Source of the DNA: Verrucomicrobia bacterium LP2A
Lineage (GTDB): Bacteria > Verrucomicrobiota > Verrucomicrobiia > Methylacidiphilales > Methylacidiphilaceae
DNA: 64,000 nt
NCBI GenBank assembly: GCA_000526255.1
Contig: JAFS01000002.1
Coordinates: forward strand, 992,001 to 1,056,000
Reading direction: 5' to 3'
Under the pieces are notes generated by a model. That model did not search any database. It had not been told where the DNA came from and worked only from the letters and a program-made list of their open reading frames with translations. Of the stretch, positions 20,453-61,110 are shown one piece after another; within the stretch, counting starts at the first letter, position 1; each line of letters starts with the position of its first letter. Both the position numbers and the translations under genes were made by a program.

Positions 20453-20631
20453 ATCCAGCCGTCCGCGCTCGCGAACACCTCATAACTAACAGGCGCTGCC
20501 GGGCTGCGGCAAGGGCGGGGAATCGGCAGCGCCGACCTGCGGCGAAAAAGGCTGCCATCGTCTACCAGCGTGATAAAAGAAAGCGGGCCTATCGGCTTGA
20601 CGCAGACCGCCACAATCCCTAGATTCTGATC

Positions 20632-21579
20632 ATGACCGACACCGCCCTCACGCTCCGCGCCTTCCACGATCTCTTCCCGGACGAGAACGCCGCGCGGGCG
20701 TGGTTTGAGCGGGCCCGCTGGCCGGACGGCCCGATCTGCCCGGTGTGCGGATGCGTGGACCACGCCTGCTGGCTGCGGACGATCCGCCGCTGGCAATGCA
20801 CCGCCTGCCACCGACAGTTCTCGGTCACCGCTGGCACGCCGATGCACCGCACCCACCTGCCGATGCTCACCTGGGCGCAGGCCATCTACCAGATCGTCGC
20901 GTCGAGCAAGGGCATCTCCGCCGTGAAGCTCTCGGAGATGCTGGGCGTATCCTACCAGACGGCGTGGCACCTCGGCCACCGCATCCGCGCCATGATGGCC
21001 GAGGATAGCCCATTGCTGTCCAACATCGTCGAGATCGACAAGACCCATGCCGGAGCGCCGCCGCGCAAGCGCGCCAAGCCGGAACGCGCGGACGACGACT
21101 GCGACCCGCCTCCGCCCAACCCCGAGGGGCGCGGCACCAAACGTCCGCTGCTGCTGGTCGCCGCAGAGCGCGGCGGCGAGGTGGCAACCAAGGTCATTCC
21201 GACCCACGGCAAGGCCGCCGTCGCCGAGGCGCTGGACGGCGTGCTCTCTGCCGATGCGCGGGCGATGACCGATGGTCTCCCGGCCTACAGTCACCTGGGC
21301 GCGGAACGAACCCACTTGTCCGTCAACCAGAGCCAGCGGGAGTACGCCCGCACCGACTCCGCGACCGGCCACCGCGTCGAATCCTTCAGCGGGTTCCTGG
21401 GACGCGCGGTGGTCGGCGCCTTCCACTTCGTCTCGCCCAAGCATCTCGGACGCTACGCTGGCGAAGCCGCCTTCCGTTGGAACCGCAAGGCCGACGCCTG
21501 CCTGGAGCGCATGGCCCTGCTCGTCCGGGGCGGCGTTGGGCGCACGCTGCCTTACCGCTTTCTCACGGGAACCGCCTGA
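20632..21579 (+). CDS. IS1595-family (ISXO2-like) DDE transposase
   Basis: A 315-residue transposase. The N-terminal zinc-finger region has CPVCGC and CTAC (residues 34-67), as in the ISXO2-like group. The DDE core follows. EIDKTH near residue 131 holds the first Asp, where most relatives have EIDETY or VDETY. MTDGLPAY near residue 213 holds the second, and HRVESFSGFLGR near residue 248 the final acid and helix. The C-terminal FVSPKHLGRYAGEAAFRWN block is typical of the family. It begins about 130 bases inside the left repeat. The last base of its stop is shared with the first base of the following ATG, so the two proteins are translationally coupled. Confidence 0.88.
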   Translation: MTDTALTLRAFHDLFPDENAARAWFERARWPDGPICPVCGCVDHACWLRTIRRWQCTACHRQFSVTAGTPMHRTHLPMLTWAQAIYQIVASSKGISAVKLSEMLGVSYQTAWHLGHRIRAMMAEDSPLLSNIVEIDKTHAGAPPRKRAKPERADDDCDPPPPNPEGRGTKRPLLLVAAERGGEVATKVIPTHGKAAVAEALDGVLSADARAMTDGLPAYSHLGAERTHLSVNQSQREYARTDSATGHRVESFSGFLGRAVVGAFHFVSPKHLGRYAGEAAFRWNRKADACLERMALLVRGGVGRTLPYRFLTGTA

Positions 21580-23141
21580 TGGCCCGCACCAAGCCCGAGC
21601 ATCCGCCCGTCCATCGGACCGACCTGCTGCCGTCGAACCTGACGGCCAGCAAAGAGGCGGCGGTGCGCGCGCTGCTCAGAGCCTACCGCCGGGGCGCGGT
21701 GCTGCTGGGCCGGGAAGAGTGGCGGCTCTTCTTCGAGACGGGCCGCTTTGACAAGAACCACGACCTGGACAAGGTCACCTTCGCCGCCGTCATCGGCGCG
21801 GCCAACCGCGTCCAGATGGCCCGCTGGCAGGTCGTCGGGCAGCTCCAGGGCTGGATCCGCAACCGGGCCAATGAGTTTCGAGACATGGTCAACCACAGCA
21901 CGCTGGCACCCGCCACCAAGCAGATACTCCACGCCATCAACGGCCTGGGCGCGTGGTTCCGGCGCAGCGAGGTGGAGAGGAGAGACACGGGCGAGGTGAT
22001 TCCCGTTTCCGTGCGACGGCTGGCGCGCGCCATGATGCGCCACTGCATGGCGCGGCATCGCCGCCCGGACCTCTCGCGCATCTCCATGCGCCTCGACCAC
22101 CGCGCGGGGAGCATCGCCCGCCCCATCCAGGCGACGCAGGGCGGCAGGGTCGGCTGGTGGGTGAGCCTCTCCACGCTCGAGAAGGGGCGCAAGATCGCCA
22201 TCCCGCTGCTCACCTACGACTACCATGCCAAGCGTCCTGGCCGCGTGACCAACGGCATCCAGGTGAACGAGCGCGAGGGTCGTCTGAGCTTCGGCGTGGT
22301 GACCGACATGGGCGAGGTCTGCGCCAAAAGCCGCGCCGACTACGACGGCCACGGCGCGCTGGCGCTTGATTTTGGGCTGTCCACGCTCTTGGCCACATCC
22401 GACGGCCGGCTGCTCGGCCAGGGCTGGCTGAAGTGGCTCAAGCGGTACGACGCGCTGCTTGCCTTGATCGCGGCCAGCCAGCAGCGTGCCGGACTCAGGC
22501 CACGCGAGAGCCAGCGGTATCGGGCGCTGGTGGAGGACGTGCGCGGCTTCCTTCGCACCGAGGTCGGCCGCGTGCTCAACCGCCTTGTCGAGCAGGGCAA
22601 GCCCAAGGAGTTGGTGCTGGAGCGGCTCGACTTCCGCCACTCCGACCTGTCGAAGCGGCTCAACGCGATCCTGCGCAACTGCGGACGCTCGATCGTCCAG
22701 GAGAAGTTGCGCGACCTGGAGGAGCGGTTCGGAATCCCCTCCGCCGAGGTCAACGCCGCATACACCTCTCAGGCATGTTCCGGTTGCGGCTATGTGGACA
22801 AGCGGAACCGCCGCGACCAGAAGACCTTCGTCTGCCTTTGGTGCGGTCACCAAATGCACGCCGACCTCAATGCGGCGGCCAACATCGAAGCGCGCCGTGC
22901 GCGCCCCAATGGTTGGCTCTTCCAGGGGAAGGCTGCGGTCCTTGCCGAGCTCGTGCGCGAGTTCGGGGAGCGACCTGTCCGGGCGCTGGGCCTGGGCAGA
23001 ACCGGGAGCCGGGGTGCCCCCGCCGACCCACGATCAACCAATCCCTACTTCGGTGGAGTGCCGTTGCCCGTGGTGAGGTCATCCGAACGCCGCGAGGCGT
23101 CCATGAAATCGCCCGATGCTCCAGCCCTTGTGGCTGCCTGA
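21579..23141 (+). CDS. tnpB: TnpB-type RuvC endonuclease linked to a DDE transposase
   Basis: A 520-residue protein, longer than the usual 370-450 of TnpB. The three RuvC acids are Asp264 (ALDFG), Glu348 (VLERLDF) and Asp429 (HADLNAA), and the zinc ribbon is Cys400, Cys403, Cys419 and Cys422 between the second and third. All catalytic and metal residues are present, so it is probably an active RNA-guided nuclease, an inference from characterised TnpB proteins such as that of ISDra2. About 230 residues precede the first RuvC Asp, more than in the second TnpB here (190). The last 80 residues after the RuvC core are Arg- and Pro-rich and probably double as guide-RNA scaffold. It overlaps the stop of the IS1595-type transposase, not a Y1 or serine transposase. 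Confidence 0.85.
   Translation: MARTKPEHPPVHRTDLLPSNLTASKEAAVRALLRAYRRGAVLLGREEWRLFFETGRFDKNHDLDKVTFAAVIGAANRVQMARWQVVGQLQGWIRNRANEFRDMVNHSTLAPATKQILHAINGLGAWFRRSEVERRDTGEVIPVSVRRLARAMMRHCMARHRRPDLSRISMRLDHRAGSIARPIQATQGGRVGWWVSLSTLEKGRKIAIPLLTYDYHAKRPGRVTNGIQVNEREGRLSFGVVTDMGEVCAKSRADYDGHGALALDFGLSTLLATSDGRLLGQGWLKWLKRYDALLALIAASQQRAGLRPRESQRYRALVEDVRGFLRTEVGRVLNRLVEQGKPKELVLERLDFRHSDLSKRLNAILRNCGRSIVQEKLRDLEERFGIPSAEVNAAYTSQACSGCGYVDKRNRRDQKTFVCLWCGHQMHADLNAAANIEARRARPNGWLFQGKAAVLAELVREFGERPVRALGLGRTGSRGAPADPRSTNPYFGGVPLPVVRSSERREASMKSPDAPALVAA
22930..23138 (+). ncRNA. Candidate guide (omega/reRNA) scaffold at tnpB 3' end
   Basis: In known TnpB systems a structured RNA is made from the 3' end of the gene and the element end, and the flanking DNA supplies the guide. 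Here that stretch is predicted to fold: ACGCC-GCGA-GGCGT at 23087-23100 is a perfect stem with a GNRA tetraloop, and a CGGGG/CCCCG stem lies near 23012-23025. The protein tail from this stretch is low in order, consistent with RNA-driven selection. If right, the RNA would end at 23138 and the guide would be read from TGAGTCAATGCGATAG onward. This is inference, supported by position and stems only. Confidence 0.4.
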
Positions 23142-23183
23142 GTCAATGCGATAGTACCCAAAGGGAGAGAGGGGAGAGAAAAA

Positions 23184-59685: not shown

Positions 59686-61110
59686 TTGACATCCTCCCCG
59701 GCCTAAATTCCGGAGATTCCTACGGCGCTCAATCCGGGCTTGAACCGGAATGAGCCGCTTCGGCGGGTTCCTGCTGCTGGCGACTTGATGCCGCTCACTT
59801 CACAGGCGATCCGGGCGTGTCCCGCCCTTAGAACATTGATCGCGCCGACCAAATCGGCGTTTTCCTCAAAACCGCACTCCACACACATGAACCGGGCTTG
59901 CGTCCGACGGTTGTCCGCCGACCCATGGCCGCAACACGGACAAGTCCGGCTCGTGTTCTGCGGCGGCACGACTAGGAGCCAGCCGCCTCTCCACTCCATC
60001 TTGTACTCCAGCTGCCGCCGGAACTCGAACCAGCCTTGGTCGAGGATGGACTTGTTCAGTCCAGGCTTGGCCCGAACGTTCCTTCCCGGTGCATCCGCCG
60101 TGCCCGAAGCCGACTGGGACATGTTCCGCACCTGCAAGTCCTCAATGCACACCATCGCGTGGTTTTTGCTGATCGTGGTCGTGACTTTGTGCAGGGAGTC
60201 GCGGCGGGAATTGCCGATGCGGGAATGAATCTTCTGGATTCGGGCCTTGGCCTTCTTCCAGTTGTTGCTGAACTTGATCTTGCGGCTCATGGCCTGCTGC
60301 GCCTTGCACAGGGCGGTTTCATGCCGCTTGAAGCTGTTGAGCGGCGCATAGAACGTGCCGTCCGAAAGCGTGACAAACCGTGCCACACCCATGTCGATAC
60401 CGACCGCTCCGCCCTTCGGGATGGGTTGCTCGACTTCGCGCTCGGTCTGGATGCTCGCGTGCCACTTGCCGCAGGACTGGCTGACGGTGACGTTCTTCAC
60501 CGTCCCAAGCGCCTCCCGGCTGAGGCGGACCCGCAGCCAGCCCAGCTTGGGCAGGAACAGGCGGCTATTCGTCTGGTCGAGCTTGATCTGTTTCGGGTCG
60601 GGGTAACGGAAGCCATCCGACTGGCCCTTCTTCTTGAAGCGCGGGAAGTCGGCCCGCTTGGCAAAGAAGTTACTGTAGGCCCGCTCCAAATCCTTGAGCG
60701 CCTGTTGCAAGGGATGAACGGGCGCATCGGCCAGCCAAGGCGCGACACGCCCGGAAGGCATAGGTTCGCCGTTACGCCATTTCGTAAGTTCCTTGCACAG
60801 CCCGGCGTAACTGAGCTTTTTCTCGCCGGCACCGTAACGCGCCATCTGCAAGTTCAATGCCTCGTTGAACACAACCCGACACGAGCCAGCGAAGCGGCGC
60901 ATTTGCCGCTCTTGCTGGCCGTCTGGCCGCAGTTGGTACCTGAAGGCTTGCAGCCGCCGCATTGCGCTCAATCATACGGGCGTATCATGATGGATGCAAA
61001 CGTTCTTTGGCCTCCGTGGAATGTCCAGTGACGAGTCCATCCAGCAACAGACACCCAGCCAAAGCTAAGGAGGACCGCGCTATCCTTCCCCGCCCGGAAG
61101 GACGGGGCTT
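59686..61110 (-). mobile_element. Stand-alone tnpB element (IS1341-type, IS200/IS605 group)
   Basis: A single tnpB gene flanked by end hairpins of the IS200/IS605 kind. At the downstream end, CCGG (59698-59701) pairs with CCGG (59710-59713) around eight bases. Upstream, CCCCG (61088-61092) pairs with CGGGG (61103-61107), with further pairs between. No tnpA lies within. It sits between the thioesterase gene and tRNA-His, and the tRNA starts some 84 bases beyond the upstream hairpin. The end positions are approximate. Confidence 0.65.
59703..60962 (-). CDS. tnpB: TnpB, RuvC-type RNA-guided nuclease of IS200/IS605 group
   Basis: A 419-residue TnpB of usual length. The RuvC acids are Asp190 (GIDMG), Glu274 (IEDLQV) and Asp370 (NADLVGA), and the zinc ribbon is Cys341, Cys344, Cys360 and Cys363. 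The N-terminal helices start with MRRLQAFRYQL, where the guide RNA binds. No tnpA (Y1) gene is nearby, so the element could not move by itself. The stop lies almost on the element end, as the guide RNA scaffold overlaps it. I chose the ATG at 60962; a TTG at 60971 adds three residues. Confidence 0.92.
   Translation of the reverse strand: MRRLQAFRYQLRPDGQQERQMRRFAGSCRVVFNEALNLQMARYGAGEKKLSYAGLCKELTKWRNGEPMPSGRVAPWLADAPVHPLQQALKDLERAYSNFFAKRADFPRFKKKGQSDGFRYPDPKQIKLDQTNSRLFLPKLGWLRVRLSREALGTVKNVTVSQSCGKWHASIQTEREVEQPIPKGGAVGIDMGVARFVTLSDGTFYAPLNSFKRHETALCKAQQAMSRKIKFSNNWKKAKARIQKIHSRIGNSRRDSLHKVTTTISKNHAMVCIEDLQVRNMSQSASGTADAPGRNVRAKPGLNKSILDQGWFEFRRQLEYKMEWRGGWLLVVPPQNTSRTCPCCGHGSADNRRTQARFMCVECGFEENADLVGAINVLRAGHARIACEVSGIKSPAAGTRRSGSFRFKPGLSAVGISGI

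What the first reader, a model, noticed from the sequence alone, without database searches (positions are those of the whole stretch)
20502..23141. TnpB-type nuclease as second gene of an IS1595-like DDE element
TnpB nucleases are known from IS200/IS605 (Y1 transposase) and IS607 (serine recombinase). Here an intact TnpB (RuvC Asp264, Glu348, Asp429; zinc ribbon Cys400/403/419/422) is fused by start/stop overlap (21579) to an IS1595-type DDE transposase, and candidate terminal repeats enclose both genes with the right one at the tnpB stop. If real, an RNA-guided nuclease helps retain a cut-and-paste or replicative DDE element. This would be a new pairing of mobile functions. IS1595 elements are known to carry passenger genes, so this may be a case of capture.
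Basis: partly seen in the sequence, partly recalled or inferred. Interest (0 to 1): 0.82.

Follow-up and report, generated by a model that had tools for sequence, protein, structure and literature searches.

The report
Bacterial DDE transposon carrying TnpB nuclease
A bacterial jumping gene that moves with an ordinary DDE (IS1595-type) transposase also carries an intact TnpB, the RNA-guided nuclease ancestral to Cas12, with its guide-RNA scaffold at the right end and a fixed 3-base motif beside every insertion, a pairing described in eukaryotic transposons but for which I found no bacterial report.

Summary
The pairing is real. tnpA (IS1595 family, 20632-21579) and tnpB (21579-23141) lie in one element, 20584-23159, not starting at 20502. 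The host genome has six copies plus a fragment, a congener six more, and divergent relatives occur in Azospirillum (tnpB alone), Indioceanicola, Salipiger (44% identity) and viral contigs. Most copies keep an 8-bp target duplication outside both genes, and empty alleles in congeners confirm insertion, including at the window site. tnpB is intact in 12/12 genus copies and under purifying selection, while tnpA often carries deletions. The last ~210 nt encode a conserved, covarying RNA ending at the right end: a TnpB-type omegaRNA. All 21 readable insertion sites have 5'-RTA immediately left of the duplicated target; none has its mirror on the right; tnpB-less IS1595 elements have it in 1 of 16. 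This fits a TAM for a nuclease guided by target duplication plus right flank, which would cut the empty allele. The TnpBs form one clade inside IS607-type TnpBs: a single capture. Cutting, guide and TAM are inferred, not shown. TnpB-like Fanzors on DDE transposons are known in eukaryotes; I found no published bacterial case, though one key survey was not readable here.

The parts
20584..23159 (+). whole element (2576 bp): IS1595-type transposon with tnpA, tnpB and omegaRNA
   Evidence: shared exactly to these ends by six own-genome copies and six in congener G002; window site empty in G002
20573..20575 (+). ATA, the RTA motif just left of the target duplication; candidate TAM
   Evidence: RTA at 21 of 21 sites, 0 of 20 mirrored on the right, background 0.9%
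20576..20583 (+). left target duplication AAAGAAAG (two bases differ from AAAGGGAG)
   Evidence: empty allele in G002 reads GGTA-AAAGGGAG-AG
20584..20604 (+). left terminal repeat CGGGCCTATCGGCTTGACGCA
   Evidence: 15/21 matches to the inverted right end by eye; conserved in copies
20632..21579 (+). tnpA, IS1595-family DDE transposase, 315 aa, possibly impaired in this copy (5-aa deletion before E250)
   Evidence: Pfam/NCBIfam; comparison of copies
21579..23141 (+). tnpB, TnpB-family nuclease, 520 aa, RuvC D264/E348/D429, zinc ribbon C400/403/419/422
   Evidence: AF2 model pLDDT 82.7 matches Cas12f and TnpB structures
22950..23159 (+). omegaRNA scaffold overlapping the 3' end of tnpB (low synonymous change begins near 22839)
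   Evidence: 4-fold-site divergence drops from ~0.5 to ~0.15; 46 pairs, 95.9% kept, 14 with compensatory changes
23139..23159 (-). right terminal repeat, beginning with the tnpB stop codon
23160..23167 (+). right target duplication AAAGGGAG, also the first 8 nt of the predicted guide
23160..23179 (+). predicted guide (first ~20 nt of the right flank)
   Evidence: inference from TnpB biology: guide follows the right end

Best explanation
This is an IS1595-family DDE transposon that carries a captured, functional TnpB RNA-guided nuclease. Shown: transposase and ends of IS1595 type, 8-bp target duplications, many copies, an intact selected tnpB, a conserved structured RNA at the right end, and a fixed RTA motif left of each insertion. 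Inferred: tnpB transcripts are trimmed to an omegaRNA that runs out of the right end, so the guide is the target duplication plus right flank. TnpB with that guide cuts DNA in which RTA directly precedes the guide, that is, the empty site in a sister chromosome or after excision. Repair from the occupied copy then restores or spreads the element. Insertion protects the occupied allele: at the left junction only 8 guide bases follow RTA, and at the right junction CCC precedes the guide.
For: Copies and ends; empty sites: 54, 55. Recurrence in distant hosts: 20-22, 35, 41. Selection: tnpB intact 12/12 with pN/pS 0.31-0.36 against 0.54-0.80 for tnpA (77). Four different internal tnpA deletions, two of them present at two sites each, leave tnpB whole. 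OmegaRNA: 58, 90. RTA 21/21 left, 0/20 mirrored right, 1 of 16 in tnpB-less IS1595. Fold: 99, 104. TnpB clade inside IS607 TnpBs.
Against: No biochemical or RNA evidence. RTA could be a target preference of TnpA rather than a TAM, or both. One close tnpB-less relative (L071) also has ATA. 13 of the 21 sites come from two genomes of one genus. Whether IS1595 transposition leaves an empty donor site, which a retention role after excision needs, is not established here.
Confidence: 0.8

Rival explanations
1. RTA is set by the transposase: an asymmetric IS1595 synaptic complex reads RTA on the left-end side. TnpB has adapted its TAM to it (as in IS605) or merely rides along.
For: IS605 TnpA reads the motif that is also the TAM (established knowledge); RTA is present even where target duplications are lost; one near tnpB-less relative has ATA.
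Against: A two-fold symmetric DDE complex should place the motif on either side; 0 of 20 right sides show it. tnpB-less IS1595 elements lack it in 15 of 16.
Confidence: 0.3
2. TnpB is a passive passenger in an IS1595 element, with no part in its maintenance.
Against: tnpB stays intact where tnpA decays, with low pN/pS; conserved omegaRNA ends at the element end; RTA bias.
Confidence: 0.08
3. Two separate insertion sequences nested or abutting by chance.
For: IS605-type TnpBs are common in this genome.
Against: Same gene order and ends in 12 genus copies and in distant hosts; target duplications and empty sites outside both genes.
Confidence: 0.01

Closest known systems
IS607 elements (serine recombinase + TnpB, e.g. 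ISXfa1)
   Same: Closest TnpB relatives by tree; tnpA-tnpB order and overlapping genes; guide RNA at right end
   Different: Different transposase chemistry; IS607 has no terminal inverted repeats or target duplications (PMC6188088), here both are present
IS200/IS605 elements (Y1 transposase + TnpB, e.g. ISDra2)
   Same: TnpB with a TAM-like motif left of the element and omegaRNA at the tnpB 3' end
   Different: Y1 transposase inserts 3' of the motif without duplication; here an 8-bp duplication lies between motif and element
IS1595-family insertion sequences
   Same: Transposase, zinc ribbon, inverted repeats, 8-bp duplications (8-bp also for ISApl4, PMC12561309)
   Different: Others examined lack TnpB, and only 1 of 16 has the RTA motif
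Fanzor1/Fanzor2* in eukaryotic DDE transposons
   Same: TnpB homologue captured from an IS607 lineage by a DDE transposon with TIRs and TSDs (PMC10711439)
   Different: Eukaryotic, with a derived active-site arrangement. Here prokaryotic, canonical D-F-G and Glu; TSDs vary, so they cannot be fixed scaffold as proposed for Fanzor1

Membership tests
IS1595 family | IS1595/ISXO2-like DDE transposase with N-terminal zinc ribbon | tested here: met
IS1595 family | 8-bp target duplications | tested here: met
IS1595 family | terminal inverted repeats | tested here: met
   imperfect in the window (15/21 by eye), 20/22 in Salipiger
TnpB nucleases | RuvC DED and zinc-ribbon cysteines | tested here: met
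TnpB nucleases | Cas12/TnpB fold | tested here: met
   predicted model only
TnpB nucleases | omegaRNA overlapping tnpB 3' end and ending at the right end | tested here: met
   conservation and covariation; transcription not tested
TnpB nucleases | TAM-dependent RNA-guided cleavage | not testable with these tools
   RTA motif found; cutting not shown
IS607 element | serine recombinase (Resolvase) TnpA | tested here: not met
   window tnpA has no Resolvase match, unlike L053 and L054
IS200/IS605 element | Y1 HUH TnpA, no target duplication | tested here: not met
Fanzor | rearranged active site (DPG, alternative Glu) | tested here: not met
   D264-F-G and Glu348 in the aligned column; signature from PMC10711439

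The most novel reading that the evidence does not exclude
A bacterial cut-and-paste or replicative DDE transposon uses a captured TnpB to select which insertions survive: only those in the orientation that places RTA left of the duplicated target are guarded. This makes RNA-guided homing independent of the transposase's chemistry, and a prokaryotic parallel of Fanzor transposons.
Probability: 0.5. Interest if true: 0.9.

Novelty: new variant of a known kind. Interest (0 to 1): 0.82.

Why it matters
TnpB is known as a partner of two transposase types in bacteria. A DDE partner shows that the nuclease is a portable retention module, as proposed for Fanzors, in a bacterial form. Because the 8-bp duplication lies between motif and element, it makes directly testable how a TnpB tells the occupied from the empty allele and whether the nuclease or the transposase sets the flanking motif.

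Tried and rejected
Left repeat at 20502: rejected, no copy shares it. AF2 with three sequences: pLDDT 37, discarded. Rfam: no omegaRNA family matched. TAM in IS607 relatives: one Bifidobacterium empty site read, flank GGTCT, not informative at ~35% identity. Azospirillum L027: left end not found, left out of the motif count. L069 (Methylocalor): first held as tnpB-less; its left flank reads GGTA and an overlapping start MRKAHGPLE is cut by an IS256-like gene, so probably a relic, counted in neither set. Wider search: no other genome in 385 (class of the Azospirillum) or 388 (own phylum, sampled) at E<=1e-80, so the element is rare. Paper searches for IS1595 with TnpB found no such element.

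Full report
What is there. The window holds an IS1595-family transposase gene (20632-21579) whose stop overlaps the start of a TnpB gene (21579-23141). TnpB residues D264, E348, D429 and four zinc-ribbon cysteines are invariant in 48 aligned TnpBs. An AlphaFold2 model (mean pLDDT 82.7) finds Cas12f and the TnpBs ISDra2 (8h1j) and ISFba1 (8iaz) among solved structures; the last 50 residues are disordered in the model.

Ends. The host genome has six copies and one fragment at a contig end. All share sequence from 20584 to 23159 and differ outside. Three have perfect 8-bp target duplications (TAAATGGA, TTCCTCAC, ATTGGTCG). A second species of the genus, G002, has six more copies, five with perfect 8-bp duplications and one with 7 of 8. 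Empty alleles exist: the window site in G002 reads GGTA-AAAGGGAG-AG, so the window's left duplication AAAGAAAG has changed at two bases; the L032, L029 and L020 sites are also empty in congeners. Both genes therefore lie in one element.

Relatives. Divergent copies occur in G006 and G003, on two Indioceanicola plasmids (71-76% TnpB identity), on a Salipiger plasmid (44%; near-perfect inverted repeats, duplication ACGGCAGG), and in viral contigs. Azospirillum oryzae holds a tnpB without tnpA. In a protein tree all these TnpBs form one clade (SH-aLRT 98) inside a clade with IS607-associated TnpBs (99). In the transposase tree the tnpB-bearing rows can be one side of a branch, with only 79 support.

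Selection. tnpB is intact in 12 of 12 genus copies, pN/pS 0.31-0.36; tnpA shows 0.54-0.80. Four different internal deletions remove parts of tnpA, two of them shared by two copies at different sites, and none touches tnpB. Deleted forms thus appear to have moved, presumably with transposase supplied in trans (inference).

Guide RNA. Divergence at four-fold sites falls from about 0.5 to 0.15 over codons 421-480 and stays low to the end. In 13 relatives the last 210 nt keep 95.9% of 46 pairs, with 14 pairs showing changes on both sides, above all 500 shuffles and all slid controls (some rows are near relatives and the structure was derived from the same alignment, so the shuffle counts are not probabilities). 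Rfam has no match. Position and shape fit a TnpB omegaRNA whose guide begins at 23160.

Flanking motif. At 21 of 21 sites with a readable left end the three bases before the target duplication are ATA or GTA; none of 20 right flanks shows the mirror; RTA makes up 0.9% of trinucleotides in these loci. The first base of the duplication is A or T at 20 of 21. Among tnpB-less IS1595 elements with clear ends, 1 of 16 has RTA (Fisher p=2e-8 for the first 13). The sites within one genus are different loci but one lineage; eight of the 21 lie outside the two main genomes and also have RTA. A symmetric transposase cannot easily give a one-sided motif, so I favour a TAM seen through selection by TnpB; a transposase-set motif remains open.

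Mechanism. The proposed guide is duplication plus right flank, and the target is the empty site RTA-duplication-flank. In the occupied allele RTA is followed by only 8 matching bases, and the right junction has CCC before the guide. This is inference from TnpB biology; cutting, RNA processing and excision were not tested.

Novelty. Fanzors on eukaryotic DDE transposons are known and derive from IS607 TnpBs (PMC10711439). In the library searched no paper joins IS1595 with TnpB; one major TnpB survey was not held. I rate it a new variant of a known kind.

Noticed in passing
window 59829-59960 (-) (G000:C2:1051829-1051960): Another, distantly related TnpB-type gene lies in the window (422-codon open frame); the genome has about eleven such weak matches.
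   Followed up: no
L220:3501-5591: Viral contig with an IS1595 transposase near this clade followed on the same strand by a different, IS605-like TnpB; the scaffold contains Ns, so linkage is unsure. Possibly a second DDE-TnpB pairing.
   Followed up: partly
L069:2600-5700: Methylocalor plasmid IS1595 tnpA with left flank GGTA and an overlapping start (MRKAHGPLE) cut off by an IS256-like transposase gene: probable relic of a tnpB-bearing element.
   Followed up: partly
L040 and L043 (G000:C2:208838-210990; G000:C1:1039611-1041763): Two copies share the same internal tnpA deletion at different sites and lack target duplications; at one, the congener's empty allele shows bases missing next to the element.
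   Followed up: partly
L068 (IMGVR_UViG_3300025534_000004): An intact tnpA-tnpB copy sits in a 148-kb contig classed as viral, with target duplication TTTGAGCC; a possible vehicle between phyla.
   Followed up: no
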